A DNA stretch of 64,000 nt, from positions 5,146,001 to 5,210,000 of the forward strand of contig NZ_CP102770.1 of NCBI RefSeq assembly GCF_038561935.1. Reading direction: 5' to 3'. The translations under genes were made by a program, and so were the position numbers. Under the pieces are notes generated by a model. That model was given only the letters and a program-made list of their open reading frames with translations, searched no databases and was not told where the DNA came from. Shown piece after piece: positions 27,534-64,000 of this stretch (position 1 is the first letter of the stretch; every line of letters begins with the position of its first letter). The stretch comes from Myxococcus stipitatus (lineage in GTDB: Bacteria; Myxococcota; Myxococcia; Myxococcales; Myxococcaceae).

Positions 27534-27536
27534 GTC

Positions 27537-27577: not shown

Positions 27578-27586
27578 CGTGTCACC

Positions 27587-46041: not shown

Positions 46042-46144
46042 GAGGGGGGAGGCTATCACGACCCAACGGGAGGGCTGAACAGGGCTTGCGCGAGGAGTGC
46101 GCGTCCAGTACGCGCCTGGACGCCCACATCGACCACGGGACGCC

Positions 46145-47941
46145 ATGCTGCGCCTGCCCTTCATTGCTCTCGCGAACCTGTTCCTGCTGCTGAGCTCCCT
46201 CCTGGGAGCCCCCTTCCGGATGCTGGCTGCTCGCCACCGCCCGGCGTACGTGCGCTTCCGGCTGACGGGGGACCCCTCGTACCGCCAGCAGCGCCGACCC
46301 CGGTTCTCGCTGGGGGGCGGGTCCAAGCCTGAGCCCGCGGATGTGACGTCTCTGGAGCGGTTCGGGGAGGACCTGAGGCTCCTGGCGAAGGATGCCCGGG
46401 TGAAGGGCATCGTGCTGGAGGTAGAGGAACTGGGGCTGCCGTCGGCGAAGCGGGACGCGGTGGTGGCGCTGCTGGCGGAGTTCCGGGCGGCGGGGAAGCG
46501 GGTGGTGGCGTGGGCGGTGATGGTGGACTCGGACAGCTACGCGTTGATGTGCGCGGCGGACGAGGTGTTGCTGGCGCCAATGGGGCGGCTGGAGCTGGTG
46601 GGCTATGCGGCCGAGGCCACCGCGCTGGGCGAGGGGTTGTCGCGGGTGGGGATTCGGGGGCAGTTCGTCCGGCGGGGTGACTACAAGACGGCGCCGGAGT
46701 TGTTCACGCATCCGGAGGTCTCGGACATCCAGCGGCGGACGGTGGAGACGTTCCTGGACGAGCGGTACTCGGCGTTGGTGGAGGCGGTGTCGGCGGGGCG
46801 GCGGAAGACGGCGGATGAGGTGAAGGGGTTGATTGACGTGGGCCCGTTCAGTGCGCAGCGGGCGAAGGCGGCGGGGTTGGTGGATGCGCTGGTGAGCGAG
46901 GCGGACCTGTCCGTGCATCTGGGGCTGGTGGCGGCTCCGGCGGCGGACTCGAAGGCTCCGGCGGCGGAGGAGGATGAGACGGAGCTGGAGCCGTTGGAGA
47001 TGTATCTGGAGACGGTGCCGTTTCCGCCGGTGAAGTGGAAGCGATTGAAGCGGCGGACGCGTCTGGCATTGGTGCCGGTGTCTGGGATGATTGTGCCGGG
47101 GAAGGGGAACGCGGGCGGGCGGCTTGCGACGGCGGACGCGGTGGTGAAGGGGTTGCGAGCGGCGGGGCGGGACAAGCGGTCCAAGGCGGTGTTGTTGTAC
47201 GTGAACAGCCCTGGGGGCGCGGCGATTGCGTCCGAGCAGATCCTGGAGGCGGTGCAGCGGGTGGCGAAGAAGAAGCCGGTGCTGGCGTACATGGATCGGG
47301 TGTGCGCGAGCGCGGGCTACATGGTGGCGTTGGGGGCGAAGGAGGTGTGGAGCGCGCCGCACGCGGTGGTGGGGTCGATCGGCGTGTTCGCGGGGAAGTT
47401 CGACACGAGCGGGTTGCTCAAGCTGCTAGGGATTCACCGCACGGTGCTGACGCGGGGAGCGAACGCGGCGTTGTTGTCGTTCTCGAAGGCGTTCTCGGAA
47501 GGGGAGCGGGCGGCGCTCGAGGCGGATGTGGAGGAGATGTACCAGTCCTTCCTGGGGCACGTGGCGAAGGCGCGGGGGCGGACGAAGGAGGAGATCCACG
47601 CCCTGGCTGAGGGGCGGGTGTACTCGGGCCTGAGAGCGAAGGACGTGGGGTTGGTGGACAGGATTGGCGGGTTCGAGGAGGCGTGCAGGCATGCGCTGTC
47701 TCTGGCGAACGTGACGCCGGGGGACTTCGAGCTGAAGACGTATGGGGCGGCCGAGCGGAAGATGTCGCTGCTGCGATTGCTGGCGGGGGCCGCACATCCC
47801 CAGACATATGCCTTCTGCCCGTGGTCGTGGAATCTAGGGGGGCATGAGCAGGATTTGCTGGCTTTGCTGGCTGATGGAACAAAGTGGGGAGGGTGGCTGC
47901 GACAGTTGGTCAGCGAATGGCGTGACGGCAAGTATTGGTAA
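46145..47941 (+). CDS. sppA: Signal peptide peptidase SppA, 67K type
   Basis: 598 residues, the long double-domain form. An N-terminal membrane helix (FIALANLFLLLSSLLGAPF), then two S49 domains. The catalytic Lys181 is in RRGDYKTAPE in the first domain, and nucleophile Ser389 is in CASAGYMVALGAKEV in the second, as in E. coli SppA. It degrades cleaved signal peptides in the inner membrane. The gene is unusual in base use: codons prefer G over C in third position, making the coding strand strongly G-rich. Confidence 0.94.
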   Translation: MLRLPFIALANLFLLLSSLLGAPFRMLAARHRPAYVRFRLTGDPSYRQQRRPRFSLGGGSKPEPADVTSLERFGEDLRLLAKDARVKGIVLEVEELGLPSAKRDAVVALLAEFRAAGKRVVAWAVMVDSDSYALMCAADEVLLAPMGRLELVGYAAEATALGEGLSRVGIRGQFVRRGDYKTAPELFTHPEVSDIQRRTVETFLDERYSALVEAVSAGRRKTADEVKGLIDVGPFSAQRAKAAGLVDALVSEADLSVHLGLVAAPAADSKAPAAEEDETELEPLEMYLETVPFPPVKWKRLKRRTRLALVPVSGMIVPGKGNAGGRLATADAVVKGLRAAGRDKRSKAVLLYVNSPGGAAIASEQILEAVQRVAKKKPVLAYMDRVCASAGYMVALGAKEVWSAPHAVVGSIGVFAGKFDTSGLLKLLGIHRTVLTRGANAALLSFSKAFSEGERAALEADVEEMYQSFLGHVAKARGRTKEEIHALAEGRVYSGLRAKDVGLVDRIGGFEEACRHALSLANVTPGDFELKTYGAAERKMSLLRLLAGAAHPQTYAFCPWSWNLGGHEQDLLALLADGTKWGGWLRQLVSEWRDGKYW

Positions 47942-48117: not shown

Positions 48118-51100
48118 ATGCTGCGAATCCGAGGAGTCGGCTTGGGGCTGGGCGTACTGCTGTGCATGGGGGGCTTACTGCCTGTGCGCGCGTATGGCTC
48201 GGAGCATGTCAGTGCCTATCAGCATGATGGCTCGCCCTATGGCGTTGGGTCTGGCATTGCACCGCGAGTCCGAGTCGCAAAGACTTTCTACCTGACGCAC
48301 GAGGATGCCTATGACTTCCTCGTCGTTCTGCCCACCTTCGATGTGGATCTGGGCCAGGACGTTGCTGGACTCCACACGCCTGTGCGCAACGACGTCCAGG
48401 GCGTCGGGCTTCCAATCTTCAACCGGGCCGGCGAGTTCGGCAGCGCCGGGCAACTGAAGGCCTACATCGACCTTCGAGCGCTCAGTCCCGACGCGCAGGG
48501 GACGACGGTTGACGCCGCGACGGCGCTCCTGGCCCATGAAGTCGCGCATCAGTGGACAGGGCACATCCGATACCGGCTCGCGGGAGAGTCCCAGCTCCGG
48601 AGCGACCTGCTCGGGCGGGACGCTGCCCACTGGAGCTTCTTCTTCGATTCGGATGCCTCGGTTCTGTATGGGTCGGACTGGGGACAGGACTCGCCCGGGT
48701 ATTTCTCCGCGCGGAGAAGCCAGGCCCGCTACTCCGATCTGGACCTGTACCTGATGGGATACCTCTCGCCCCTGGAGGTAGGCCCCCTCACGCTGTTGGC
48801 TCCCGATGGGACGACTCCGCACCAGGCGACGGACTTGCCCCCGCCCGCTGGAACGAGTCTTCGGGCGAACGCCCAGACGCTCTCCGTGGCGGACATCATC
48901 CGGGCGGAGAATGATCGCGTGCCTGCGATGTCTCGGTCCCAGAAGGGATTCCGCGCGGCCTTCATTCTCTTGACGCCTCCAGGCGTGCCCGCGACGACGG
49001 CCCAGGTCCAGTTCGTCGACGCGCTGCGCAAGACCTTCGAGCAGCGCTTCTTCTTCCTTACGAAGGGGAGAGGTGTCTTTGAATCAGACTTGGTGGAGAC
49101 GCCGCCTGGACAGGTCGCGGAGACTCCCGGGGTTCAGCTGGGCCTGGACTACCTGCTGGCTCAACAACAAGCGTCTGGCGCGTGGGGACAGGGCCCCGCG
49201 TCCGTCCGTGAAACCCACCAGGTCCTGGATGCGCTTCGTCTCTTCTATTCAGACCCACGAGCCCCGGACGCGGTGACCCGGGGTGGGAGCTACCTGTCGG
49301 GCCTCACGCCCTCGGATGCGGACAGCGTCGCGCGCCGAGCACTGGCCTTGCGGGATGCATCCGCGCAGACGGCTGCGCGGCTTGCCGCCTTGCGTGGTCA
49401 GCACGGTGGCGCCGGCCTTGTGCCTGGCTATGCGCCGTCCACACTGGACTCCATCCTGGTCGGCCAGGCGGTGCGGCTCGCGGGAGCGGTGCCGTCGGGA
49501 TTGGATCCGCTGACGCCCTACCTCCTCGGAGAGCAGAACGAGGATGGGGGCTGGCCCATGGTGAAGGGGGGGCCGAGCCGGTTCGAGGTGACGTCGTTCG
49601 TCATGGAGCACCTCGCGACGTTGTCACGCACTCCTGAAATCACCACGGCGGCTGGCAAGGCACTCGCTTGGTTGCGCGCACAGCGCCGCCCGTCAGGGCT
49701 CTATTGGGAGGATCGGGAGAGCGTCCGTGCAACGGCCTGGGCGCTCTTCGCGCTGTCCTCCTGGCGGCAGCTTGGTGCCGAAGAGGCGCGGCAGTCCGCG
49801 ACGGTTCTGCTCTCGCGGCAACGCGCGGACGGGAGCTGGGAGGGTTCGCCTCTGGATTCCGCCCTGGCCTTGCGTGTCCTGCGCATCGCGTTGGCCCCGA
49901 ACCTGTCCTTGGTCGACTCGGACCTCCAGCTCTCCAGCGCCACAGCCACCGAGGGAGAGACGGTGCTGGCCACCGTGCGCTTCTTCAACACGGGCTATGT
50001 CGCCGCGACAAACGTCCTGGTGCGGGCGTTCGACTCGATGGGGCGACCGATGGGCGACGGACAACGCGTTGCGTCCGTTGCCGCGGGTGAGCGTGGGCAG
50101 GTCGTCCTGAGACTGGATACCTCCGCCAGCCGAGGCTCCTCCCGGGTCTTCGTTCGTGTTGATGCCAGCAACGAGCTGGATGAGTCCTCCGAGGCGGACA
50201 ATGGTGCCTCCCAGCCGCTGTTCGTGAGTGATCCCACCGAAGGAGTAGACCTGTTCGTCCACGCGGGAAGTGTGACCGCGACTCCGTCGAAGTTGGCCCG
50301 GCTTCCCTCGGTTGTGCGGGTGACGGCGACCGTGGGGAACCTTGGAGGAACCGCCTCCTCGGAGGTTGAAGTCCAGGTTCGACTGGGCTCCGTGGTCCTG
50401 GCCCGGTCTCGTCGCGCCATCGGTCCCCGTACGCATGAGCCGCTCGCATGGGACGTGACGGTCTCCACCTTGCCTCCCGACTCGGCCATCACGGTGTGGG
50501 TGGATGCCCTGGATGAACAGGTCGAGAGCCGGGAGACCAACAACGCGCTGAGCACGCCCCTGGAGCGAGTGCAGGGGGTCGACGTGTCGGTGGCGAACGT
50601 GACCGTGAATGCGCCCGTGGAGCAAGGTCGCGACGCGACCATCCAGTACCAGGTCGCCAACTCCGGAACGGTCCTCGCCAGCGTCACCCCGGTCGTTGAA
50701 GTCCAGGGGCAGGGCGGCAACGTCATTGCCAGCCTCACAGGTGCGACGCTTCAAGTCCCGGCTGGGAGCCAGGTCTTCGCGCAGGCCGTTTGGCGCGCGA
50801 GTGTCGCTGGCGCCCTACGAGCGGTGGTGCGAGTCTCGCATCCAGAAGACCTGGATTCGAGCAATGACGCGGGATTCGCCACCTTCGATGTCACCGCGTC
50901 GGGCCTCGCCAACCTGCATGCCGTGGGCAATGCCCTCTCCATCACGCCCAGCCGCCCGCTTGAGACGAAGAGCGCTACGGCGCAGGCCACCGTACGAAAT
51001 AGCGGAGTTGGCGCGACCTCGACCTTCAGTGTCGACTGGTATCTGGGCAACCCCCTGGAGGGCGGGACCCGGGTGTTCCACGAGTCTCAGCCTCCGCTCT

Positions 51101-54100
51101 CCGCTGGGAGCTCGCGCGAGGTGTCCGCGACCTTCACCGTGCCGCAAGACAGTCCCAAGGCACTCTTCCTCGTCCTCGACGCGGAGGATGTGGTGTCGGA
51201 GTTCGATGAAGATGACAACCAGGTGCTGCTGGCCTTGCAGCCCATTCCCATCGCGGACCTGGTCGTGGCGAGTGCGGATATCCTTCCGCAACCAGCTTTC
51301 CCGCAGGAGGGAAGCACGGTAGCGGTCACCGTCTCGGTCCTCAATGCCGGAGGGCAGGCCGCCGAATCCGTCTCGGTTCAGCTGTTGCTGGGAGTTCCAG
51401 GTCTGGACGACGCGACGCTGGGGGAGCAGGTCATCGCGACCATTCCCGCGGGCGCGAGGCGTGAAGCGTCCTTCACGTGGGCCACGACCGGCGTGAAAGG
51501 CAATGTTCGTCTGGTGGCCCACGTCAACCGGGGTGGGGCGACCCCCGAGGGACGTCCGGACAACAACCGCGCGGAGAAGGGCGTGGTGGTGCAGGACGCG
51601 AAGCTCGCGCTCAGCGAGCCGTTCTTCTCCCCCAACGGAGACGGGGTGAAGGACACCACGGAGGTGGTGTATCGGCTCGATGCCGCGGCCCCTGTGTCCG
51701 TGCGGGTGCTGGACGATGCGGGCAAGGAGGTCCGAACGCTTGAATCCGTGTCCGCGCAGGCAGGGAGTCTGACGTGGGACGGACGCTCGCAACGCGGGCG
51801 CATCGTTCCCGACGGCACCTATCGCTTGATGGTGACGTCGCCGAAAGCGGAGGGGCATGCCGTGGTGGGGACGCTCGTGGCGGTGGTGGATACCAACCGG
51901 TATCCCATCGAGAAGTCCGAGGTCGCCTCACGGGATCTGGAGAGCCTGGAGTCCTATGTCGCGCCTCTCCACCACAGGAAACCCTTCGCGGCCATGCCCG
52001 ACGAGAGTGGTGTCGTCTTCTATGCGCAGGACCCGTCGACTCAGAAGCACGGCATCTATCTCCAGCCCCTGGGGGGAGCTGCGGCGAAGCGGTTGACGCG
52101 CGAAGACTGGGTCGGGAACTACTGGGGCCAGCTCGCAATCAGCCGGGATGGGAGTGTTGCGGTCTTCGCGAGCAGCACGCAGGACACCAGCGGCAATGGA
52201 CTGAGCACACTGACCTCACTGAGTCTTTCGGACGGGCAGGTCCGTCATGTGGTGGCGGAGACGCGCGCCTCGGATGTCGAAGTCATCCTCTCGGATGAGG
52301 TCAAGCCTGTCCTGAGCATGGATGGAAGCGTCTTGTTCTTCGCGTCACGACATATGAGCGCGGAGCGGGAGTTCAGCTACCGCCTCGAGTCGATCCAGAC
52401 GAACGGTACGAACCGGCGGGTCCTGGCGGAGCATGAGCTGGCGGAAATGAGCCTTTCGCCAGATGGACGCTCCCTCGCGTTCGTCACGAAGGAGGGGGCG
52501 CTGTACCGCATTGGAGTGGATGGTACAGGCCTGCGCCAGCTCCTGCCGGACACGACCCTCTCCAATGGCCGCTATCCCGACAGAAGGGACACACGCATTC
52601 GCGGTGGCGACGATTTCAGGCATGGCTGGCTTCCCGACGGGGACGCCATTGCCTACGTCGAAGCGGGCCCCATGCGGTACTCCTACACGGATTGCACCGA
52701 GGGCTGCGTCGACATCTACGAGTCGGTCTCGGCGGCCGTGAAGGCGGTGGACGTCCAGTCGAAGGCGATTCGTCCCATCTACGAAGCTCCCGTGGGCTCC
52801 AGGGACTTTCTCGCTGACCTCGCCGCGCTACACATCAATCCCTTGAGCGGAAGCGTGTTCTTCCGTTCGTACCTGGGGAACAGCGAGGATGACGCCTGGC
52901 TCCAATGGGTCACCGGGCTTCGTCAGTCGAAGCTCTTCACGGAACACAAACTAGAGGCGGGGCGATTCTCTCCTGGAGGGAGCTTCGTTCACGGCTACAT
53001 GTTCCTGGAGAGCGGCCCGTCGCTCTATCGCGCCCTCACCACTCGCGCCAACCTCACGGCGAGGTTGTCCGCGACCCGAAAGCCAGGCGCCTCGATGATT
53101 GGCTTCACGGGGACCGCCGCGGACGCCAACTTCGAGTCTTTCGAGGTCGGCGTCCGCCCGTACCGGGCCACGATTCCATTCGTCGCGATCTCCCGAGGGG
53201 CTGTGCCCGTGGTGCGCGGGAGCCTGGGGAACTGGACACCTCCGGGGCCTGGCCTCTACGAAGTGCAATTGCTGGTGCGGGACAAGGCTGGAAACCTCCG
53301 GACCCACCAGACAACGGTGGGATTCAGTGATCGCCCGGTGGTGGCAAACCTCACTCGCGAGCCGGAGTATTTCTCGCCGAACAGCGACGGAGTCCTCGAC
53401 GAGGTCTCCGTCCACTACACGGTGACCGCTTCCGCGAGCATCGAGTTCCAGGTCATCGATGCTTCGGGGGAGGTGGTGCGGCACATCGCGCGCACGCATA
53501 CCGCCGAAGGTGACCACAGTCTCGCCTGGGATGGTCGAGACGACGACGGCAACGTCGCGGCGGATGGACGGTACACGCTCGCGGTCGAGGGAAACGAGCT
53601 GGAGGTCACTCTCGATACGACCCCACCTCTCATCGCACTGGACCTTGGCCGGGTGAGCGGGGAAGAGGAGTACGCCCAGACCATTCCAACGAGTCGCCTG
53701 GAAGCCGTCCAGGTGATGAAGGGGGGCGTCACCCTGAAAGCGGCGGACACCTCGCTCGTGGGCTGGACCCTGGAGCTCGCGCGTTCGGACGGGATGGCTG
53801 GCTTCGACGAGTGGCAGACCGGCAAGGACGAGACGAAGAGTTTCAAGGTCGCTCTCGCGGAGTTCGAGGGACGTGCCGTGCGGCTTCGTGCAAGAGATCT
53901 CGCGGGCAACGAAGCCGTCACCACCCCCCAGCGATTCGAAGAGCAGCTCTACATCACCGAAGTGGGCACGGGATTCGAGAGAGATAACTACTGGTTGCTC
54001 CCGGGGCGTGTCGTCTATCGCATGCCCGGCAAGAAGGCTGTCGAGACGCCCACGTCGGTGGGGCTCATCCCTTACTCTGGCCCCAAGAAGTACTCACTTC

Positions 54101-57100
54101 TCATTGATGACTCGGTCTCCCGCTCCTGGGCGGCATTCAGCATTGCGTACCGCACTCCTGGCTCACAGGAGTGGAGGGTCGACCACTCGAATGTGTCGTT
54201 CGTAGGTGACGCCCTCGTCGTCTGGGACACGGAACTCATCGGAGCTATTTCCGAATTCGAGGTCCGTGCCCAGGACGGCGATGGCCGCATCTTTACCCGG
54301 CGCATCCAATTCGGGCAGGACGGCGGCGCCGTACCGTTGGATGCATGCGCGATGATTCGCGAGAAGGAACAGGCCCTCCTCATCGCCAGGTTCGACGGCG
54401 CCGCGTACAGCGACAACTCACCGATCCAGCCGGGAGCCTTGTGGACTCTTGAGAACCTGGATGGAACAGGTGAACTGATTCGTCTTCCCGTCTTGGACGG
54501 GCAGGCGACTGGCAGCACCAGCAGGAGCTTCTCCGAGACCATCTCAACCGCCACGATGAAGGGCTGCCTCTACCGGACCGGCTTCTCCGCCATGCGAGAG
54601 AACGGCAAGCCGCTGCTCGCCGCGGGTGAGGTGAATCTGTGCGTCGTGCAGCTGACTGCGCAACCGGGGGGCGTGATGGCCACCGAGTCCTTCCGCGGAG
54701 GAGGACTGCGGTCACTGGAGATCCTCTCGAGTGGAGGCGGAACCTCCGCGCCCATAGCGCGCTTCGGCGCATTCGATGGGAGGTCGGCGACGGTTCCCAT
54801 GGACCTGACGCGGTTCTCGAGTGGAGGGGAGATCGCCGCCACTGCTCGTGGCGTGCTGGAGGACGGTACAACCGTGTTCACACGCGTGAATTGGCCGCCG
54901 GAGCGCTTGGCGCATGTAGAGGAATGCCGCGATGAGGCACGTATCCGCATCCCCTCTCCAGTGCTCTCCCTTTCATTGCCTGAGCGCAATGGGAAGGCGC
55001 CGCTGTGTTCGGTGCATCAGCCTCGGTTCACTGCGTCGATCTCCGGTACCATCGCGACAGGCCATACGTTCTCCACGTTGACCGTGGACTTGAACCCGGC
55101 ACGCGGTTCCGGGACCTACCACCCCGTCATCTCGGGATTCACCCCGGGCAGCGGGTCACTCGCGGCCCAGTACACCGTGGAAGGCTCCGCGCTGCCCGAA
55201 GGCGTCTACTGGCCGCAGGCAACCGCCACCTGGAGCAACGGCGACAAGTCCAAAGCAGAGTCGGCGGCATTGATTGTGGACCGGACTCCTGCGGTGGCTG
55301 TCATTACCCAGCCAGCGGGTGGGACACGCGTGTGCCGCCAATCCCAACGGCAACAGGATGGATCTCTCCGCCACTACATCAACGTGGAGGGACAGGTTGC
55401 GGATGCCCACCTGGAGTCCATCGAACTCTTCGCGCGTGTCAATGGAGGCGCTTGGACGCAGCATGCGGCGAAGGCGTTCAATCCGATGGGGGCGACTTCG
55501 GTTCAAGGACAACTCGGCCGGGTGGACGTCACGAACCTGGGATCCGATGTCGAACTGCTCGTGAGTGCCAGGGATGCGAGCGGGTCGTCGTGGTGTGCCC
55601 TTCCTGTCCCCGTGGAACTCGCGGGCGTCGTGAGTGTGAGCACGCTTGCCTCTCAGCCCGCCATCTTCTCGCCGGACCTGGATCAGGCGCATGACACCAC
55701 CGAGCTCGCCTTCGCATTGACGGAACCTGCCTTGGTCTCCGTGAGCGTGTGGCAGGACCGCGTGAAGCGGGGCACCGTGGCGGAAGTGTCATTGGGTGAG
55801 GGGCCCGCATCGCTGACGTGGAACGGCAAGCTCGCCGATGGGGCGCAACTCCCCGATGGAGACTACCGACTGGTCCTTCAGGCTGTGGATGGCTGCGGCG
55901 CCTCGGCGGAGCGGGCAACCATGGTGCGTGTGGACACTGTTGCGCCCATGGCGCGCCTCGACACACCTGAGCAGGACGCGGCAGTGGGCACCGCGATGGT
56001 GGTCACAGGTGAAGCCTCCGATGTGAGCTTCCTTCGCTACGAGCTGGCGGTGGGGCAGGGCTCGGCACCGGTTGATTTCACCCCCGTCATCGTCCGGATG
56101 GCTCCGGCCTCGGGCATCCTGGGCACGGTTCCAACGGACGCCTTGCCCGTGGGCGAACATGTCCTCCGACTGACGGTCGAGGATCATGCAGGCCATGCTC
56201 GCCAGGTCTTCCGTCGGTTCGTGCGGCAACCTGCGGGCAGGCTGCTCGCGGCCTCGGTGACGCCCAGACTCATCTCTCCGAATCCTCCCTCCGGTGATGG
56301 AGTCCAGGATGTGGCCACATTGGAGATGGTGCTCGCGGCACCTGCCTCCGTGCGGATCCAACTCGTTGATGGTCTTGGAGCAGTGGTGAAGCCACTGCAG
56401 GCTGCGATTCCTACTCCGCAGGGAAGTACGTCACTGGTGCTGGGCCCCGCGGCTCTGGCTGGTGTCGTGGATGGGACGTACTTCGTGCAGGTGGACTTGC
56501 TGGACACCGGGGACTCGGTGCGCCTGCCCCTGACTCTCGACACCCAGATGCCAGCGGTCGCCCTCAGCCAGCCATTGTCTGGATCGTCACGGCGAGCCAG
56601 CGTCTCCGTGGAAGGGAGCTTCGCCGACCTCCATCTGGAAGAGTGGAAGGTTGAGCATGTGAACCCGGGTGGTGTGACGACACTCGTCGGGACGGGTGTG
56701 ACACAACACAGTGGCGTGTTGGCACAGTTGGAGGGACTGGAGGAGGGGACCCATCGCGTGCGTTTGACAGCGCGAGATGGCTCGGGGAACACGCGCACGC
56801 TCGAGGCGCCCTTCTCGGTCGACGTGACACCACCCCAGGTGGCGTTCAAGTCCCCACTCCAGGGGGCATTCCTATCTGGGCTGCGAGGACCCGTGGGCAT
56901 CGCGGGAATCGCAGTGGATTCGGGCCTGGCGACAATCCAGCTGCGCATGCTTCGTGGTGCACAAGAGAGGCTGCTCTTCACGGGAACGACTCTCCCGTCC
57001 GAAGGAGCCTTCTTGAATTGGGCCGTGGCTCAGGAGGGGAACGGCCCCGCCGAGTTGGTGCTCTCCGCGGAAGACACCGCGGGCAATCGGGCGGAGAGCC

Positions 57101-60100
57101 GCATCGAAGTGATGCTGGACAGCACGCCGCCCGTGGCCCACGTGGTGTCCCCGCGAGCCACGGCCTTGAGCTCCGACAAGTCCATCCGTGGCACCGCGAC
57201 GGATGAGAACCTCACGGAGTGGACGCTGGCATTGGCTTCCGCTGCATCGGTCCAGGACTGGCGAGAGGTGGCTTCCTCCACGCGGCCTGTCACGGCCAGT
57301 GTGCTGGCGACGTTGGCGTCGCTGCCATCGGACGGAACGTACCGAGCGCGTCTCACGGTGAAGGACCGCGCGGGCAACGAAGTCTCGGATGAGGTGGACT
57401 TCTTCGTCGACACGCAGCCGCCCGAGGCGCCACTGGCCCTTGTCGCGACCCAGCAGAGACCGCAGAACGTCGCGCTCTCCTGGACTCCGAGCCTCTCGGT
57501 CGACGTCGTCGCCCACGAGGTGCTCCGGGCTGCCCGTGATGCCGAGTGGGTGCGGCTGGCCACCGTGGAGCTTCCCGCCACGACCTATCTGGATACGGCC
57601 GTGGCGGACGGAACCTGGCGCTACGCGGTGCGCGCGGTGGATGGCGCGGGCAACATCAGTGAGGTCTCGCCCGAGGCCGTCGTTGAGATCGACTCGACAC
57701 CGCCGCTCGCCGTGATTCGCACGCCCACCCCTGATGCCGTCGTGCGCGGTCAGGTTGAAATCTCGGGGACCGCGTTCAGCGCTACCGACTTCAAGGAATA
57801 CCGGCTGAGCGTCGGGGAAGGGGCTTCACCGACCTCCTGGCGTGTACTGGTGCAGTCGCCGGTAGCCGTCACTGGTGGTCGCCTGGCGGGGCTGGATACG
57901 GGCGCGCTGAGGCAGGGGGCGCTCTACACGCTGCGGCTCGAATCGGAGGACTTCACGGGCAATACGGCAGAGGTTCGCGTCGGTGTTCGCGTGGACAACG
58001 AGCCGCCAACTGCCCCAGTCCTGCTGTCCGCATCGGCGCAAGGGTCGAGCGTCGCGCTCCAGTGGCAGGCTGCGCCAGCTCCCGACCTGCTGGGCTACGT
58101 CCTGTTCCGCGATGGCTCCGTGGCCAATGCCCCCGACGGTTCGAGCCTGGAAGACTTGCGCCCCTATGCATTGGCGGCGACGCAGTACACGAACATGCAG
58201 GTTCCGGACGGGGTTCACGGCTACCACCTGGTGGCCATCGACCATGCTGGAAACATCAGCCCTTCGTCGAACACGCTCTCGGTCACGGTTGAAACGCGAG
58301 CGCCTGCTGCGCGCATCACGTCCCCAATGCCGCTGGCCCGTCTGCGCGGAGCCACGCGGTTGTTGGCCCATAGCGAAGATGGCGATGTGGCCAGTATGCA
58401 ACTGCAAGCCCGTGGAAGCCCCACGGCGGACTTCGCTTCCTTGGGAGCCGCGGGCACTCGTGCCCCCTTCGAGGCGATGTTGACCTCGAATGTTCCTCCG
58501 GGCCGGATCGTGGAGCTTCGTGCAGTGGCCACGGATACCCAAGGCAACACGGATGCCTCACCTGCGACGATCCATGTCCTTCGTGAAGCGATCCCCAGCC
58601 GGTCTGTGCTGTCCGCGAGGGTGGACGCGTCAGACATCCACTTCTCGTGGGATTCGGACGCCACCCAGGCAGGAGTGGCTGGGTTCGACATCCGGGGGCC
58701 CGAGGGCTCCGTGCTCCCCTACCAGGGGAAACCGGCGGGGACGGCCTCGGCGTCGTCCGGAATGGCCTTTGACGCGGCGCGAGCCTATGACGACTCCACC
58801 AGTACCTATTGGTCGTCAGGAAGCGAACCGGAGAAGCACTGGCAGGTCGTGTTCGCGGCGCCGGTCATGCTGGACACCGTGTCCGTATGGACGCAGGCGC
58901 AGACAACCGCGCGAGTGTTGGGACGGGTGGATGGATTCTGGGTCGAGGTGGCGGATCCTCTCATCGCCCCGAGTTGGGGTGGATATGCCACGGTCAACCT
59001 GACGGCGCCGCTGGAGGTGAGTGGGCTCCGACTGGTCTTCACGAATGCCCCCTTCGGCACGGTCACGCTCTACGAAGTGATTCCTGGCGTGCGTCGTCTG
59101 ACTCGCGGCAATACCTTCACGTTCAGCGGCAATGAGGGGACGAACAGGTACACGCTCGAGGCCGTGGGTTTTGGTGGAACCTCTTCGGAATCCAGCGCTG
59201 CGACGGTCCACATCTATCGCCCCACGCTGGAGGTTCCGACCAGCCCGACCGCGGATGACACGGTGGTCATGCGGGGAGGAAACGCCGTGGCGAACTCGAC
59301 GGTGGAGCTCTTGTCTGACACCACCGTCGTCGCCACGACCACTGCGGACTCGTCGGGAGCCTTCACGTTCGCGACCGTTCCTCTGCAGCCTGGGACCAAC
59401 CAGTTCGAGGCGCGGGCCACGGATACGGCGGGGAACCGGAGCATGCGGTCCGAGACCGTCGAGGTGGTGCGAATCCCTCGGCCGCAAGCGACTGTCGCCC
59501 TGACCTTGGACGGAGTCGCTCAGAGCACGGTGTCGCTCTCCTTCGCGGTTTCGGGTGACATGACCTGGCTGGCGGGCTTCGCCCTCCTTCGCGACAGCGG
59601 GCAAGGGTATGTGGAGGTTGGGACGGCGGGGACTGACGCCCGGACGTTCGTGGACCCGCAGGTCCGCAATGGAACGCACACCTACCAGGTCGTGCCGGTC
59701 AACCAGGCCCACCTGAGGGGAACTCCCTCCAACGCGGTGCAGGCCGCTGTCTCTGTTGCTCCTCCGCCAGCCCCCGGGATGATCTCCGTGTCGCCACTGC
59801 CGGAAGGCGGGGCGCTGGCGGTCCAATGGCAGAGTGGAGGCGGTGGCGTCGCCTATCGTGTCGAGCGAGCGCTGGGCGCCACGGGTCACTTTGAAGTGAT
59901 CCCCACCCACACAGAGACGAGCTCCACGCAACTCGAGGACGTGGGGCTGGCCAATGGCGCGCTCTATCGCTACCGGGTGATGACGCTGGATGCCCAGGGC
60001 AACACCAGTGTGCCCGTGGAAGCGTCGGGTACACCTTCGGACGTGTTGGCCCCGGGCATGCCCCGGTTCACCTTCCCGACGACCGCGGGCACTCCGCTGA

Positions 60101-63100
60101 CCGTGGCGCAGTCCTCGACGAACGTAGAGGGCGTCGCGGAAGCGGGGACTGTGGTCACCCTCGTCAGGAATGGTATTCCCTATGCGGACACTGCAACTGG
60201 GAAGCTGGAAGTAGAGGCCGTTCCGGACGCCCTTGCATATCCGCCGCAAGACCGCATCGAAGGGTCTTCGAACGGCCGCTATTTCGCATATCTCGGGACC
60301 ATCGAAGCGCAATCGCGGATCGTGGTGGAAGAGGTGGGCGGGAGTGTCATCGGTAGCATCGTGAATCCCTTCACCGAGCCTCCCCATCAAATCGTCCCAT
60401 CACCTGATGGTGAGTTCGTGGCGCTCAGAGGGTATGCGGACGATCTGGGCCGGTCTGTTGTGTACGTCGCGAGAGTGGCCACGGGTTCGATGTGGCTGGT
60501 GGGCGCGTCGCTGCAAACCTCGACCGATCTCCCCGTCTGGTCGAGGGACTCCAGGCAGCTCGTCGTGGTGGTGCGTGGAATCTCCGAGTACCTGAAGCGT
60601 GTGGATGTGGCTCGGCAGATCGAAGAGGACTTCCGCCCACCAAACTGTGAATACATCAAGGCCCACGCGCTGACGTCGCGTGGAACCGGGCTGGTGGCCT
60701 GCTGGACGGCCTCCTATCGGGACGAACTCTCCGAGGTGGACTGGAGGACGCGGTCTTCTGTTCGTCGATTCGCCGCACAGCTCATCGAGCTTCCGTTGGT
60801 CGTGTCGCCCGATGCCTCTCGGGTCGTTGTCTGGGCACACTCGGAACTGGGGCTCGGACTGCACGGAGTGTCACTCTCCTCGGCTCAGACCTCCTTGTTG
60901 TCAGACAGGTCCATGAATGAGAGTTCCGTCGCGTTCTCTCCGGATGGCCACTCCCTCGTTGCGATTTCACGAGACGGGGATGTGAGCGTCGGCACGGATG
61001 GACCGTTGGAAGTCGTGGGACATGTCGAGTCCGGATCGGGATGGCTCGGGTGGAGCCTCCAGCGGGGCCTGGTGTGGGCGAATCCAGACGCGGTGACACG
61101 CCTGAAGCTGCTGGGCCGCTTCCAGTTCGAGGGAGTCCCACTGTCGCCCGGAGCGACGCACTTCGGGGCTGCCTCCTCTGATGTCTCCCTCAACGTGAGC
61201 GAGTCCGCGGCACCTATCGAGGTCCGTCTCGATGGCCTGGGACTGCCTGACCTGTTGGCCGAGGTCACCCTCGTGCCGGATGTCATCGCCGTCGGGGAAC
61301 AGGCCTTCGCCCGGGTCACGGTGCGGAACGTGGGGGGAGCTGCGGCACCTGCCCATGACCTGTCGGTAGGCGTGCGGACCGCTGCGGGCGTTCTGCGTGC
61401 GTTGCCCTTGTTGAAGATGGGCCCTCTCGCGGCCGATACCTCCATCACGACGGAGGTCGCTCTGCCCTTGGAGGGACTGACAGGAGTCCTTGTCCTGGAG
61501 GTGGGGGTGGATCCTCGGGCCTTGGTGTCTGATGCGAACCGGGACAACAACCAGATTCGGCATCCGTTCGTCTTGGCCACGAGCAGCCTGCCCAGCGTGG
61601 CGGTTGCATTGGATTCTCCCACGGTCGAAGTGGAGGGCCTGCGTCTCGCCACCGTGACGGTCACGAACCCGGGCCTCCCTCTGACGGGGGAGGTGAGAGT
61701 GGAGTTGGTCGGATCGGACGGCGGCGTGGCTCGCGTGGTCGAGCCTCCGGAGGTCCTGACAGCTCTTCCCACGGGGCAGTCTCGCACGTTCACTCGAACA
61801 GTGGCGGTGGGTTCGCTGCTGGCGGGCAGCTACGAGGTTCGTGCCACGTTGTGGGTGAATGGTGCGGCGCGGAGCGTGGCGATGTCGCCCCTCACCGTGT
61901 TGCCGGAGGAGGCTGTTACCCTTGCGATAGCCACATCCCGGACGCGTTATCTCTCTGGTGAAGACGCAGAGGTCCTCGCGGACGTGACGAGTACTTCGCG
62001 CAACAGCGAGCTCGAAGGGACCAACCTGCGAGTGACGTTGAGGACCTCCGCGGGGACCCTTGTCGAGCAGCAACAGCTGCCACTCCCGAGGTTGTTGCCA
62101 GGGACGGTGGAGCACCCATCCGTTCGCTTCTCCACGGCCGCGATCTCTCCAGGCACCTACCATGTGACTGGAGAGGTGATGCTGGGGGCACGTTCCCTGG
62201 TTCAGGCGCAGGCGAGCTTCATGATGGAGGGGCAGCCGCGAATCTCGGGTGTCGTCTCCATCGCCGGCCAAGCCGTTCCTCAGCCGCTCCTTCGTGTGGG
62301 ACAGGTCGCCACCACGAATGTCGTGCTGGAGAACCGGGGGACTGCATCCGCGCCTCAGTCCGTCGCAAACCTGGTGGTGACGCGCCCGGATGGCAGCCTC
62401 TTCACGGCCGCGACATGGCCACTCGATCCGTTGGCACCTGGAGCTCAGTGGTCGCGGCAACTCTCGTTGGCCACCACGGATTGGAGCCTGGGAGTCCACG
62501 GCCTGACCCTGGTGGTGGAGTCGTCGACCGGCATGGCGGAGGTGCTATCGCGGCTCACACTGATGATTCTCGACGGACGTGCTCCACGGTTGGCCATGGT
62601 GACGCCCACGGACGGCATGTTCGTGCGCGGCGTGGTGAACGCGCACGTCCGCGCGCTCGACGACGCTTCGGGAGTGGGGGCGGTGCGCGTTGCCGTGGAT
62701 GGAGCTGCGCCGGTCGACGCGGCTCCGGTGTCCGGTAATGCCTTGAATGGAGTCTGGAGCACGAGCGTGACGCTCGCGTCCGAGGGCCCCCATACCCTTG
62801 TCTTCAGCGCGGTGGACCTGGCGGGCAATGACGGTCGGATCCTGGCCGCGCTCGACAATCCGCTGACAGTCAGTGTCATTCGAGACACTGTGTCGCCAGA
62901 GTTGGTGGTGTCGGGGGTTCCTGGAGAGTCACCAGTCCATGGCCCCGTGGTTCCCGTGTTCTCGGCGCAGGACGCTCATCTGGCGACCGTGGTTGCCACA
63001 CTCGATGGCAAGCCGTTCACCTCGGGGACTCCCGTCTCGACGGATGGTGTCTACGAACTCCATGTCGTCGCCACGGACAAGGCAGGCAACACGAAGCAGG

Positions 63101-64000
63101 CTCAACGGCGCTTCACCATCGACACGCTGCCGCCGCGCATCGTGCTGGGGGGAGTTGCTGAAGGAGCCATCGTCAACCACGACGTCACACCGACGCTGAG
63201 CGTGTCGGACCTGCATCTGGATGCGACACCGCCCACCGTGACCCTGAACGGGCAGCTCTTCACCATGGGGACCCTCGTCTCGAATGAAGGCAGCCACGAA
63301 CTTCGGGCAAGTGCCAGGGATGTCGCGGGCCATCTGACGGAGGCGAGCCTCACATTCGCTGTCGACAAGACACCTCCAGAGATTCAGGTGACGGGCGTTT
63401 CGCAAGGGGCCGCGGCGGAAAGCTTCACGATCCACTTCACTGCGACCGATGCTCATCTCGACGCGAACACGCTCGGAGCCGCGTTGGATGGACTGCCGTT
63501 CACCAGCGGAGAGACCGTGAACACGGAAGGTCCTCACTCGCTCCAGGTGAGCGTGTTGGACAGGGCGGGCAACTCGCGCGTCGTGACGCTGAGTTTCTCC
63601 GTCGTGACAGAGACGTCCGACCCGCTCATGCCGACGTTCCGCTACGCGGCCTGTGGCCTCCAGGACATCCTCGTGTTCGGGGATGCCCAGGTCGTAGGCC
63701 CGGGTTTGACCACGCCTGCTTCGGTGGCAGCCAACAGCCTGGCCTACGTCGGCGAACGAAGCCTCGTGTCGGGTGACCTCGTGGGTGGATACTCCGCTGT
63801 CGTGGAAGAGGGGACCCTGGTGGGTTCGCTGTACTACGGCGAGGGATACGCCATCGGCGAATACGCCTCCGTCCAAGGGGCCGTCCATCTCGTGACCCCG
63901 ACGCCGACGCCCTGCTGGTGCGGCTATGACGTGGCGGCCAATCTGCTCCAGGCGAGCAGCAACAACGACAACGTGCGCCTGTCCTCCCTGGAGAATAGCG
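48118..64000 (+). CDS. Giant secreted multidomain surface protein, 3' end outside window
   Basis: At least 5,294 codons without a stop, from the ATG at 48118 after a strong ribosome-binding site. Domains by residue: signal peptide 1-25 (ends PVRA); metallopeptidase-like domain about 30-320 with HEVAH at 140-144 and a further His171 in AHWSFFF; alpha/alpha-toroid 340-595 with four squalene-cyclase-like repeats (QQQASGAWG, QNEDGGW, QRADGSW); five CARDB domains 601-1160; FlgD-like Ig (FSPNGDGVKD) from 1162; propeller-like 1274-1621; FlgD-like at 1742, 2518 and 2722; bacterial Ig; FN3 near 3102, 3295, 3780 and 3870; discoidin-like 3542-3658; second propeller-like 4042-4321; CARDB-like 4375-4820; tandem Ig 4923-5163; then a Gly-rich repeat segment. 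No anchor is visible yet. Probable roles are adhesion, matrix or prey contact; proteolysis by the N-terminal domain is possible. Confidence 0.9.
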   Translation, partial: MLRIRGVGLGLGVLLCMGGLLPVRAYGSEHVSAYQHDGSPYGVGSGIAPRVRVAKTFYLTHEDAYDFLVVLPTFDVDLGQDVAGLHTPVRNDVQGVGLPIFNRAGEFGSAGQLKAYIDLRALSPDAQGTTVDAATALLAHEVAHQWTGHIRYRLAGESQLRSDLLGRDAAHWSFFFDSDASVLYGSDWGQDSPGYFSARRSQARYSDLDLYLMGYLSPLEVGPLTLLAPDGTTPHQATDLPPPAGTSLRANAQTLSVADIIRAENDRVPAMSRSQKGFRAAFILLTPPGVPATTAQVQFVDALRKTFEQRFFFLTKGRGVFESDLVETPPGQVAETPGVQLGLDYLLAQQQASGAWGQGPASVRETHQVLDALRLFYSDPRAPDAVTRGGSYLSGLTPSDADSVARRALALRDASAQTAARLAALRGQHGGAGLVPGYAPSTLDSILVGQAVRLAGAVPSGLDPLTPYLLGEQNEDGGWPMVKGGPSRFEVTSFVMEHLATLSRTPEITTAAGKALAWLRAQRRPSGLYWEDRESVRATAWALFALSSWRQLGAEEARQSATVLLSRQRADGSWEGSPLDSALALRVLRIALAPNLSLVDSDLQLSSATATEGETVLATVRFFNTGYVAATNVLVRAFDSMGRPMGDGQRVASVAAGERGQVVLRLDTSASRGSSRVFVRVDASNELDESSEADNGASQPLFVSDPTEGVDLFVHAGSVTATPSKLARLPSVVRVTATVGNLGGTASSEVEVQVRLGSVVLARSRRAIGPRTHEPLAWDVTVSTLPPDSAITVWVDALDEQVESRETNNALSTPLERVQGVDVSVANVTVNAPVEQGRDATIQYQVANSGTVLASVTPVVEVQGQGGNVIASLTGATLQVPAGSQVFAQAVWRASVAGALRAVVRVSHPEDLDSSNDAGFATFDVTASGLANLHAVGNALSITPSRPLETKSATAQATVRNSGVGATSTFSVDWYLGNPLEGGTRVFHESQPPLSAGSSREVSATFTVPQDSPKALFLVLDAEDVVSEFDEDDNQVLLALQPIPIADLVVASADILPQPAFPQEGSTVAVTVSVLNAGGQAAESVSVQLLLGVPGLDDATLGEQVIATIPAGARREASFTWATTGVKGNVRLVAHVNRGGATPEGRPDNNRAEKGVVVQDAKLALSEPFFSPNGDGVKDTTEVVYRLDAAAPVSVRVLDDAGKEVRTLESVSAQAGSLTWDGRSQRGRIVPDGTYRLMVTSPKAEGHAVVGTLVAVVDTNRYPIEKSEVASRDLESLESYVAPLHHRKPFAAMPDESGVVFYAQDPSTQKHGIYLQPLGGAAAKRLTREDWVGNYWGQLAISRDGSVAVFASSTQDTSGNGLSTLTSLSLSDGQVRHVVAETRASDVEVILSDEVKPVLSMDGSVLFFASRHMSAEREFSYRLESIQTNGTNRRVLAEHELAEMSLSPDGRSLAFVTKEGALYRIGVDGTGLRQLLPDTTLSNGRYPDRRDTRIRGGDDFRHGWLPDGDAIAYVEAGPMRYSYTDCTEGCVDIYESVSAAVKAVDVQSKAIRPIYEAPVGSRDFLADLAALHINPLSGSVFFRSYLGNSEDDAWLQWVTGLRQSKLFTEHKLEAGRFSPGGSFVHGYMFLESGPSLYRALTTRANLTARLSATRKPGASMIGFTGTAADANFESFEVGVRPYRATIPFVAISRGAVPVVRGSLGNWTPPGPGLYEVQLLVRDKAGNLRTHQTTVGFSDRPVVANLTREPEYFSPNSDGVLDEVSVHYTVTASASIEFQVIDASGEVVRHIARTHTAEGDHSLAWDGRDDDGNVAADGRYTLAVEGNELEVTLDTTPPLIALDLGRVSGEEEYAQTIPTSRLEAVQVMKGGVTLKAADTSLVGWTLELARSDGMAGFDEWQTGKDETKSFKVALAEFEGRAVRLRARDLAGNEAVTTPQRFEEQLYITEVGTGFERDNYWLLPGRVVYRMPGKKAVETPTSVGLIPYSGPKKYSLLIDDSVSRSWAAFSIAYRTPGSQEWRVDHSNVSFVGDALVVWDTELIGAISEFEVRAQDGDGRIFTRRIQFGQDGGAVPLDACAMIREKEQALLIARFDGAAYSDNSPIQPGALWTLENLDGTGELIRLPVLDGQATGSTSRSFSETISTATMKGCLYRTGFSAMRENGKPLLAAGEVNLCVVQLTAQPGGVMATESFRGGGLRSLEILSSGGGTSAPIARFGAFDGRSATVPMDLTRFSSGGEIAATARGVLEDGTTVFTRVNWPPERLAHVEECRDEARIRIPSPVLSLSLPERNGKAPLCSVHQPRFTASISGTIATGHTFSTLTVDLNPARGSGTYHPVISGFTPGSGSLAAQYTVEGSALPEGVYWPQATATWSNGDKSKAESAALIVDRTPAVAVITQPAGGTRVCRQSQRQQDGSLRHYINVEGQVADAHLESIELFARVNGGAWTQHAAKAFNPMGATSVQGQLGRVDVTNLGSDVELLVSARDASGSSWCALPVPVELAGVVSVSTLASQPAIFSPDLDQAHDTTELAFALTEPALVSVSVWQDRVKRGTVAEVSLGEGPASLTWNGKLADGAQLPDGDYRLVLQAVDGCGASAERATMVRVDTVAPMARLDTPEQDAAVGTAMVVTGEASDVSFLRYELAVGQGSAPVDFTPVIVRMAPASGILGTVPTDALPVGEHVLRLTVEDHAGHARQVFRRFVRQPAGRLLAASVTPRLISPNPPSGDGVQDVATLEMVLAAPASVRIQLVDGLGAVVKPLQAAIPTPQGSTSLVLGPAALAGVVDGTYFVQVDLLDTGDSVRLPLTLDTQMPAVALSQPLSGSSRRASVSVEGSFADLHLEEWKVEHVNPGGVTTLVGTGVTQHSGVLAQLEGLEEGTHRVRLTARDGSGNTRTLEAPFSVDVTPPQVAFKSPLQGAFLSGLRGPVGIAGIAVDSGLATIQLRMLRGAQERLLFTGTTLPSEGAFLNWAVAQEGNGPAELVLSAEDTAGNRAESRIEVMLDSTPPVAHVVSPRATALSSDKSIRGTATDENLTEWTLALASAASVQDWREVASSTRPVTASVLATLASLPSDGTYRARLTVKDRAGNEVSDEVDFFVDTQPPEAPLALVATQQRPQNVALSWTPSLSVDVVAHEVLRAARDAEWVRLATVELPATTYLDTAVADGTWRYAVRAVDGAGNISEVSPEAVVEIDSTPPLAVIRTPTPDAVVRGQVEISGTAFSATDFKEYRLSVGEGASPTSWRVLVQSPVAVTGGRLAGLDTGALRQGALYTLRLESEDFTGNTAEVRVGVRVDNEPPTAPVLLSASAQGSSVALQWQAAPAPDLLGYVLFRDGSVANAPDGSSLEDLRPYALAATQYTNMQVPDGVHGYHLVAIDHAGNISPSSNTLSVTVETRAPAARITSPMPLARLRGATRLLAHSEDGDVASMQLQARGSPTADFASLGAAGTRAPFEAMLTSNVPPGRIVELRAVATDTQGNTDASPATIHVLREAIPSRSVLSARVDASDIHFSWDSDATQAGVAGFDIRGPEGSVLPYQGKPAGTASASSGMAFDAARAYDDSTSTYWSSGSEPEKHWQVVFAAPVMLDTVSVWTQAQTTARVLGRVDGFWVEVADPLIAPSWGGYATVNLTAPLEVSGLRLVFTNAPFGTVTLYEVIPGVRRLTRGNTFTFSGNEGTNRYTLEAVGFGGTSSESSAATVHIYRPTLEVPTSPTADDTVVMRGGNAVANSTVELLSDTTVVATTTADSSGAFTFATVPLQPGTNQFEARATDTAGNRSMRSETVEVVRIPRPQATVALTLDGVAQSTVSLSFAVSGDMTWLAGFALLRDSGQGYVEVGTAGTDARTFVDPQVRNGTHTYQVVPVNQAHLRGTPSNAVQAAVSVAPPPAPGMISVSPLPEGGALAVQWQSGGGGVAYRVERALGATGHFEVIPTHTETSSTQLEDVGLANGALYRYRVMTLDAQGNTSVPVEASGTPSDVLAPGMPRFTFPTTAGTPLTVAQSSTNVEGVAEAGTVVTLVRNGIPYADTATGKLEVEAVPDALAYPPQDRIEGSSNGRYFAYLGTIEAQSRIVVEEVGGSVIGSIVNPFTEPPHQIVPSPDGEFVALRGYADDLGRSVVYVARVATGSMWLVGASLQTSTDLPVWSRDSRQLVVVVRGISEYLKRVDVARQIEEDFRPPNCEYIKAHALTSRGTGLVACWTASYRDELSEVDWRTRSSVRRFAAQLIELPLVVSPDASRVVVWAHSELGLGLHGVSLSSAQTSLLSDRSMNESSVAFSPDGHSLVAISRDGDVSVGTDGPLEVVGHVESGSGWLGWSLQRGLVWANPDAVTRLKLLGRFQFEGVPLSPGATHFGAASSDVSLNVSESAAPIEVRLDGLGLPDLLAEVTLVPDVIAVGEQAFARVTVRNVGGAAAPAHDLSVGVRTAAGVLRALPLLKMGPLAADTSITTEVALPLEGLTGVLVLEVGVDPRALVSDANRDNNQIRHPFVLATSSLPSVAVALDSPTVEVEGLRLATVTVTNPGLPLTGEVRVELVGSDGGVARVVEPPEVLTALPTGQSRTFTRTVAVGSLLAGSYEVRATLWVNGAARSVAMSPLTVLPEEAVTLAIATSRTRYLSGEDAEVLADVTSTSRNSELEGTNLRVTLRTSAGTLVEQQQLPLPRLLPGTVEHPSVRFSTAAISPGTYHVTGEVMLGARSLVQAQASFMMEGQPRISGVVSIAGQAVPQPLLRVGQVATTNVVLENRGTASAPQSVANLVVTRPDGSLFTAATWPLDPLAPGAQWSRQLSLATTDWSLGVHGLTLVVESSTGMAEVLSRLTLMILDGRAPRLAMVTPTDGMFVRGVVNAHVRALDDASGVGAVRVAVDGAAPVDAAPVSGNALNGVWSTSVTLASEGPHTLVFSAVDLAGNDGRILAALDNPLTVSVIRDTVSPELVVSGVPGESPVHGPVVPVFSAQDAHLATVVATLDGKPFTSGTPVSTDGVYELHVVATDKAGNTKQAQRRFTIDTLPPRIVLGGVAEGAIVNHDVTPTLSVSDLHLDATPPTVTLNGQLFTMGTLVSNEGSHELRASARDVAGHLTEASLTFAVDKTPPEIQVTGVSQGAAAESFTIHFTATDAHLDANTLGAALDGLPFTSGETVNTEGPHSLQVSVLDRAGNSRVVTLSFSVVTETSDPLMPTFRYAACGLQDILVFGDAQVVGPGLTTPASVAANSLAYVGERSLVSGDLVGGYSAVVEEGTLVGSLYYGEGYAIGEYASVQGAVHLVTPTPTPCWCGYDVAANLLQASSNNDNVRLSSLENS
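62884..63606 (+). repeat. Three tandem Ig-like repeats inside the giant gene
   Basis: Units 62884-63120, 63121-63363 and 63364-63606 encode 79, 81 and 81 residues. Each opens with D-x-x-x-P-x-I/L and contains SxxDxHL, a G-x-x-F-T/x-S/M-G turn and a closing AxDxAGN or equivalent. They are diverged at DNA level, so the duplication is old. Confidence 0.8.

What the first reader, a model, noticed from the sequence alone, without database searches (positions are those of the whole stretch)
48118..64000. Giant secreted protein joining an HExxH domain, a terpene-cyclase-like toroid and dozens of Ig/CARDB modules
One uninterrupted frame of at least 5,294 codons has an unusual N-terminus: a zinc-protease motif followed by a squalene-cyclase-type alpha/alpha-toroid, in a secreted protein. 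The remainder is a long stalk of CARDB, FlgD-like, FN3, discoidin-like and propeller-like modules. A toroid outside the cell cannot be a normal membrane terpene cyclase; it might be a binding platform, as toroids are in some other extracellular proteins. I know of no described system with this order, so it may be a new class of contact or predation protein.
Basis: partly seen in the sequence, partly recalled or inferred. Interest (0 to 1): 0.75.

Follow-up and report, generated by a model that had tools for sequence, protein, structure and literature searches.

The report
Giant partner of bacterial RHS toxins
A myxobacterium makes a 5,438-residue secreted protein with a protease-like domain and a ring-shaped domain at one end, and relatives of this giant in several bacterial phyla are usually encoded beside a second giant that looks like a toxin carrier, so the two probably form an undescribed weapon against other bacteria.

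Summary
It is one real gene (ATG 48118; stop ends 434 bases past the window; 5,438 aa). The N-terminus is an invariant HExxH domain (AF2 pLDDT 94.6; no clear PDB match) and an alpha/alpha-toroid (Z 24.9 to class II terpene cyclases; no DxDD, no thioester Cys), then CARDB, FlgD-like, Ig, propeller and DUF7305 modules. Collinear giants occur in several phyla.

Of 41 giants examined, 35 have an RHS gene within about 3 kb on the same strand (one only as weak pieces); in Myxococcota 16 of 18 genomes with the giant carry the partner; N-terminal distances of the two correlate (r 0.81, not corrected for descent).

Best reading: the giant is the surface companion (display or delivery scaffold, perhaps with protease-assisted processing) of a family of Sec-exported RHS toxins. 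The pairing is well supported; the mechanism is inferred. The papers searched gave no description of the giant or the pair.

The parts
48118..64000 (+). giant secreted protein gene (stop codon ends at 64434, i.e. genome C1:5210434; 5,438 aa)
48118..48201 (+). signal peptide (by eye; no lipobox seen)
   Evidence: sequence
48202..49107 (+). HExxH domain without Pfam family; H140-E141-x-x-H144; H171 the only other invariant His; near-invariant LDLYLMG
49120..49896 (+). alpha/alpha-toroid (squalene-cyclase type, QW-like repeats), no DxDD, no Cys
49921..51576 (+). four CARDB modules
51655..51843 (+). FlgD-Ig-like module
51964..53014 (+). TolB/PD40-like propeller region (approximate ends)
53398..53592 (+). 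FlgD-Ig-like module
55624..58500 (+). FlgD-like, Big_13/Big_3/PKD-like Ig modules (approximate ends, partly by eye)
58741..59049 (+). discoidin (F5/8)-like stretch, below cut-off
60214..61114 (+). second propeller-like region (weak: TolB model E 0.041; ends by eye)
61246..62541 (+). two further CARDB modules
63943..64000 (+). start of C-terminal DUF7305 domain (match runs to 64275 beyond the window). Beyond the window follow the RHS giant, C1:5210446-5222028 (3,860 aa), and a 202-aa TPR-like ORF, C1:5222009-5222617
46142..47941 (+). peptidase S49 (sppA-like): left neighbour of the variable island, matched in 27 of 27 genus genomes

Best explanation
The gene encodes the companion of a Sec-exported RHS polymorphic toxin. 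Shown by sequence: the two giants are a linked, co-occurring pair; the RHS protein's tip is exchanged between relatives while the giant and the rest of the RHS protein are kept; the pair is an accessory cassette. Inferred: both are exported by Sec; the giant (over 500 kDa, long CARDB/Ig/propeller stalk) stands on the producer's surface as a display and delivery scaffold; the inactive transglutaminase region of the RHS protein docks on it; the HExxH domain and toroid at one end engage or clip a target or partner protein so that the RHS shell releases its tip toxin into a neighbouring cell. My odds: functional pairing about 0.9, scaffold/delivery role about 0.55, protease acting on a target or partner at contact about 0.3. 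The figure below is for the statement as a whole.
For: Linkage: RHS gene within about 3 kb on the same strand in 35 of 41 giants of >= 5,400 aa (one, G102, only as weak pieces); 11 bases between stop and ATG in G000, and near-touching or overlapping frames in seven other family members. Order flips but linkage stays: RHS 1.2-3 kb upstream in 3 Geobacteraceae giants. Co-occurrence in 195 Myxococcota genomes: partner region in 16 of 18 with the giant and 11 of 177 without it (E <= 1e-60). G042 keeps two partner genes on other large contigs. N-terminal distances correlate, r 0.81, 0 of 10,000 permutations reach it, 31 pairs. Tip exchange: RHS identity per window 78-95%, then 35% and 19% (G000/G061); the same drop in G000/G068 and G004/G007; DNA homology stops at the RHS core. 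One of 9 tips scanned is a YwqJ deaminase (E 7.4e-14). Of 9 following ORFs scanned, 5 match SUKH, ankyrin (2), pentapeptide or MORN over cut-off. Empty site: three relatives carry 0.9, 1.6 and 8.0 kb where G000 has 34.6 kb. Transglutaminase domain with Asp where the Cys would be (canonical motif recalled).
Against: No direct evidence for surface location, contact between the two proteins, or protease activity. G040 and G150 have the giant without a partner at the threshold used (each genome had only its 4 best first-look candidates scored for the partner). G114, G123 and G135 show no adjacent RHS gene (two of these contigs end upstream). None of 9 shorter-frame relatives with downstream DNA fetched has RHS there, though 4 of them (G115, G116, G130, G133) have it upstream. 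Partner-like regions without the giant exist in 11 genomes. The distance correlation is not corrected for species descent. Other HExxH relatives carry the domain at the C-terminus of adhesin-like proteins with no RHS match in the fetched flank, so the domain is not specific to this system. 8 of 9 tips scanned, G000's included, have no Pfam family; 4 of 9 following ORFs have none over cut-off. The immunity role of the TPR-like ORF in G000 is by position only.
Confidence: 0.55

Rival explanations
1. The giant is chiefly a processing or activating protease for the RHS protein (or a trap that shields the producer), and the stalk only keeps it at the surface; delivery is done by something else.
For: The HExxH residues are invariant in all aligned members, so catalysis is probably kept; the toroid also resembles complement C4 and alpha-2-macroglobulin thioester domains.
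Against: RHS shells are known to cleave themselves at their core (PMC13018210, Results parts 1-2 read); no thioester pattern in the toroid of 57 members; about 3,500 residues of the stalk, as far as compared, align across phyla, more than a protease anchor would need.
Confidence: 0.2
2. The giant is an adhesion or predation protein in its own right that merely shares an operon or island with an RHS toxin.
For: CARDB/Ig/propeller modules are common in adhesins (recalled); HExxH relatives exist in proteins without an RHS neighbour in the fetched flank; some giants lack a partner.
Against: Co-occurrence 16 of 18 and correlated distances, gene order flipped but still linked, and retention in G042 when unlinked.
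Confidence: 0.17
3. The toroid is a working terpene cyclase or prenyltransferase of the cell.
For: Best fold matches are class II terpene cyclases, Z 24.9, 2.6 A over 250 residues.
Against: No DxDD catalytic motif in the window's protein (the string occurs in 2 of 57 relatives); it is fused to a protein with signal peptide.
Confidence: 0.02
4. Separate genes joined by a sequencing error.
For: None found.
Against: Collinear giants of similar length in single-contig genomes and in several phyla.
Confidence: 0.01

Closest known systems
RHS polymorphic toxins with inactive transglutaminase domain (Zhang et al. 2012, PMC3482391; passages read)
   Same: Signal peptide, inactive transglutaminase, Ig-like domains, RHS array, variable tip: the partner gene fits this class.
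   Different: The words CARDB, squalene and toroid do not occur in the held text; it proposes that the inactive transglutaminase anchors the toxin by binding peptides; no giant companion appears in the passages read.
Large signal-peptide Rhs proteins of Myxococcus xanthus (Rhs4, Rhs5, about 4,000 aa; review PMC10433427, passages read)
   Same: Size, signal sequence, C-terminal toxins, killing that persists without T6SS and outer-membrane exchange.
   Different: Those lie on Mx-alpha prophages; no giant partner is mentioned in the passages read, and their N-termini were not compared here.
Bacterial teneurin-like proteins (PMC13018210; abstract, Results parts 1-2 and passages read)
   Same: YD shell with enclosed variable toxin, downstream immunity gene, frequent in Myxococcota.
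   Different: Defined by FN-plug, NHL and YD-shell, and predicted lipoproteins in Gram-negatives; the partner here has a transglutaminase-type N-terminus, and that paper's main text has no transglutaminase or CARDB.
Tc (ABC) toxin complexes (recalled)
   Same: A second large protein works with an RHS-shell toxin carrier.
   Different: No Tc-type family was reported in the giant or in the first 1,786 residues of the partner.
Class II terpene cyclases; complement/alpha-2-macroglobulin thioester domains
   Same: Toroid fold.
   Different: Catalytic DxDD and thioester Cys absent.

Membership tests
RHS polymorphic toxin (partner gene) | YD repeats and RHS core domain | tested here: met
   TIGR01643 E 1.8e-42, TIGR03696 E 6.8e-20
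RHS polymorphic toxin (partner gene) | C-terminal tip exchanged between relatives | tested here: met
   window identities of 49-95% before the core fall to 19-35% after it in three comparisons
RHS polymorphic toxin (partner gene) | immunity gene directly downstream | tested here: inconclusive
   an ORF of at least 60 aa begins near the RHS stop in each of 18 loci, some of which may be chance; 5 of 9 scanned match SUKH, ankyrin, pentapeptide or MORN over cut-off; TPR-like in G000. Protection not testable.
Inactive-transglutaminase RHS class | transglutaminase domain near the N-terminus with a lost catalytic residue | tested here: met
   PF01841 E 1.6e-12; GNDADL, read against the recalled canonical motif, in place of the Cys
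Zinc metalloprotease | HExxH with conserved Glu | tested here: met
   invariant in 12, 57 and 55 aligned sequences
Zinc metalloprotease | known metalloprotease fold | tested here: inconclusive
   confident model with HExxH in a helix; Foldseek best E 1.0, VIA best Z 4.9
Zinc metalloprotease | proteolytic activity | not testable with these tools
   -
Class II terpene cyclase | toroid fold | tested here: met
   Z 24.9, rmsd 2.6, 250 residues
Class II terpene cyclase | DxDD catalytic motif | tested here: not met
   absent in the window's protein; string found in 2 of 57
Complement/alpha-2-macroglobulin thioester domain | thioester Cys-Gln motif | tested here: not met
   0 of 57 by pattern; no Cys in the window's toroid
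Bacterial teneurin-like protein (for the partner) | NHL domain before the YD shell | tested here: not met
   no NHL family up to E 0.05 in the first 1,786 residues
Two-partner CDI (CdiA-like) for the giant | TPS secretion domain | tested here: not met
   none reported by Pfam up to E 0.05 in four pieces covering the giant

The most novel reading that the evidence does not exclude
A new, trans-phylum two-protein weapon: a 5,400-7,000-aa surface giant with an unassigned metalloprotease-like head and a repurposed terpene-cyclase-type ring displays and delivers Sec-exported RHS shells, a missing delivery partner for large RHS toxins that kill without type VI secretion.
Probability: 0.45. Interest if true: 0.88.

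Novelty: new variant of a known kind. Interest (0 to 1): 0.72.

Why it matters
How very large, signal-peptide RHS toxins of Gram-negative bacteria reach the outside and enter neighbours is open: the myxobacterial review read in passages says delivery of Rhs4/Rhs5 does not depend on the type VI system and presumes a CDI-like surface mode (PMC10433427). A co-occurring giant companion in several phyla makes the question testable by deletion. The HExxH domain has no Pfam family and no clear match among solved structures, and the ring looks like an enzyme fold reused outside the cell.

Tried and rejected
Rejected: sequencing error or fusion artefact; terpene cyclase function and thioester trap; teneurin-like identity of the partner. 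PHROGs: no match for the HExxH domain or the partner N-terminus. PADLOC: no match for the HExxH domain or for the partner in two pieces; toroid and stalk were not scanned in these two libraries. The HExxH domain had no clear fold match; this shows neither that its fold is new nor that it is not a known one. A Pfam scan of one alternative C-terminus of a relative (ending in YWEARWYLF) found nothing. Paper searches: searches found no paper; some searches gave listings, from which passages of PMC10553843 (CARDB adhesins of sulfate reducers) and PMC4612132 (YD toxins of mussel symbionts; no transglutaminase or CARDB in its text) were looked at without use. Not done: species-tree correction of the distance correlation; comparison with the N-termini of M. 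xanthus Rhs4/Rhs5; model of a giant-RHS contact.

Dropped rows and limits: in the distance comparison G143 and pairs whose RHS N-terminal match did not begin before model position 400 and end after 850 were left out (31 pairs kept). The stricter count (16 of 18 against 1 of 177) leaves out ten genomes whose only partner match was a shorter one (213-370 bits, frames of 953-2,497 aa); I drew that line after seeing the scores; the lowest full-region score kept is 397 bits (G158), and G010 was kept at 266 bits because its match is cut by the contig end. In some searches only the best 4 and 7 first-look candidates of a genome were scored. Only 80 of 220 confirmed loci were returned, and 50 of these 80 were searched as genomes. 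For the two giants of G132 the downstream stretch was placed by frame length.

Full report
The gene. The window lies in a 10.17-Mb genome of two contigs. The frame runs from 48097 and its stop ends 434 bases beyond the window, at C1:5210434. The likely start is the ATG at 48118, which gives a signal peptide (by eye) and 5,438 aa. G068, a genome of the same genus, holds the locus of a record titled Myxococcus sp. RHSTA-1-4, so the host is probably a Myxococcus (inference).

N-terminus. Residues 29-330 hold an HExxH domain that no Pfam family matched. In 55 aligned sequences from several phyla the invariant positions include those of H140, E141, H144 and H171 of the giant, and LDLYLMG is invariant or nearly so (renumbered). 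AlphaFold2 models the domain with pLDDT 94.6 and pTM 0.92, the HExxH lying in a helix that follows a helix and strands, as in zincins (my reading). Foldseek gave no significant match among solved structures (best E 1.0) and VIA-align no Z above 4.9; this leaves membership open. The third metal ligand is probably H171 (inference). Residues 335-593 form an alpha/alpha-toroid: profile match to squalene-hopene cyclase at E 1.1e-33 and fold match Z 24.9, 2.6 A over 250 residues, to a class II terpene cyclase. DxDD is missing in this protein (string in 2 of 57 relatives) and there is no thioester pattern (0 of 57), so a binding or structural role is likelier than catalysis.

Stalk. Six CARDB stretches lie in the frame, with FlgD-like and Big_13 Ig modules, PD40 propeller signal and a C-terminal DUF7305. 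Discoidin is below cut-off and fn3 was not reported. A model of the 12 giants of the family aligns with giants of other phyla in collinear blocks up to about position 4,100 of 5,644, which is as far as the fetched loci reach; some stretches of the model stay unmatched in between, and Ig modules cross-match. Of 27 proteins compared there, L107 matched little beyond the N-terminus and L123 and L125 only the HExxH domain.

Distribution. 12 of 96 family genomes have a giant of 5,466-6,375-aa open frame, 3 of 27 in the genus; the other HExxH matches are ORFs of 426-726 aa and one fragment of 113 aa. A scan of GTDB contigs confirmed 220 loci and returned 80, with titles from Myxococcota, Gammaproteobacteria, Burkholderiales, Nitrospirota, Acidobacteriota, Desulfobacterota and Geobacteraceae. 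In 50 genomes behind 50 of these 80 loci, 34 places have frames of at least 5,400 aa.

The partner. Eleven bases after the stop starts a 3,860-aa protein with signal peptide (by eye), transglutaminase domain, DUF6531, YD repeats and RHS core. The transglutaminase Cys position holds Asp in a conserved GNDADL (canonical motif recalled), the inactive type described in PMC3482391 (passages read). The last 350 or so residues lose recognisable identity between relatives that are 78-95% identical before (G000/G061), and their DNA homology ends at the RHS core. Of nine tips scanned one is a YwqJ deaminase; the other eight have no Pfam family. An ORF of at least 60 aa begins near the RHS stop in each of 18 loci; of nine scanned, one is SUKH, two ankyrin, one pentapeptide, one MORN, one has only sub-threshold zinc-ribbon matches and three have none. 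Together this is the make-up of a polymorphic toxin with immunity-like genes.

Linkage. The 12 giants and the 34, less five that are the same loci, make 41. An RHS gene lies downstream on the same strand in 9 of the 12 (G043 at 2.6 kb; G010 cut by the contig end) and in 23 of the other 29, within about 1.3 kb (G102 only as weak pieces); it lies 1.2-3 kb upstream in 3 more of the 29 (L096, L104, L146): 35 of 41. Without one: G040, G041, G042, G114, G123, G135. G042 has two partner genes on other large contigs; G041 has one on a short contig of 8.9 kb, so there distant linkage is not excluded. The contigs of G114 and G135 end just upstream. Among shorter-frame relatives, none of nine has RHS downstream but G115, G116, G130 and G133 have it upstream. 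The partner's N-terminal region of about 1,050 aa, outside the repeats, was found in 35 of 38 RHS frames given (three of these only in part because the locus was cut).

Co-occurrence. In 195 Myxococcota genomes the giant is found in 18 and the partner region (E <= 1e-60) in 27; 16 have both, Fisher p 1.6e-14. Leaving out ten genomes with only shorter, lower-scoring partner matches, a line drawn after seeing the scores, it is 16 of 18 against 1 of 177, p 2e-20; the one exception, G087, has a fragment of the giant's N-terminus on another contig. These p values ignore descent. Distances of the two N-termini over 31 pairs correlate at r 0.81, with no permutation of 10,000 above 0.26; shared descent contributes an unknown part.

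Island. sppA is matched in 27 of 27 genus genomes. Where G000 has about 34.6 kb between sppA and the mrp side, G070 has 0.9 kb, G056 1.6 kb and G072 8.0 kb of other DNA. After the TPR-like ORF come several transposase-like ORFs (by eye). The pair is an accessory cassette at this site.

Mechanism. Shown: pairing, tip exchange, accessory character, conserved HExxH, ring without cyclase motif. Inferred: both proteins are exported by Sec; the giant stands on the surface; the inactive transglutaminase region docks on it; contact or cleavage triggers entry of the tip. The M. xanthus review (passages) reports that killing by large signal-peptide Rhs proteins persists without T6SS and outer-membrane exchange and presumes a surface route, so a companion of this kind would fill a real gap.

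Novelty. The paper searches gave no description of the giant or of the pair; most subscription papers are not in that library. The partner belongs to a known kind; the giant and the pairing look new.

Noticed in passing
L125:5078-11671, L129:6911-11671 and other loci among L123-L142: The same HExxH domain sits near the C-terminus of other proteins of roughly 800-3,900 aa, with no toroid match and no RHS match in the fetched flank; two scanned ones carry FG-GAP, HYDIN-type Ig, Glucodextran_B or Lcl_C modules.
   Followed up: partly
L023-L040: ORFs of 426-726 aa carry a diverged copy of the HExxH domain in other genomes of the family.
   Followed up: no
L043/L044 (G068), oriented 21292-28018: Between the giant and the full RHS gene lies a 2,001-aa RHS-partner N-terminus whose C-terminal part has its own HExxH stretch, followed by a 251-aa ORF with a lipoprotein-like start (by eye): perhaps a displaced or alternative toxin cassette.
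   Followed up: partly
C-termini of giants in G043, G040, G041, G042, G004, G007, G032, G010 and others: Giants end in different ways: a DUF7305-like domain, a type ending in ...YWEARW without Pfam match, a ...GFEC... tail in Marinicella-like records, or a dockerin-like stretch in two acidobacterial ones (by eye).
   Followed up: partly
genome C1:1856233-1860240: Another CARDB-rich protein (1,405-aa frame, 11 CARDB stretches listed) elsewhere in the genome.
   Followed up: no
window 44607-45680: RNA 3'-terminal phosphate cyclase (RTC plus insert) upstream of sppA.
   Followed up: no
window 1915-5996: HEAT-repeat protein and a protein with cyclic-nucleotide-binding domains whose frames touch.
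   Followed up: no
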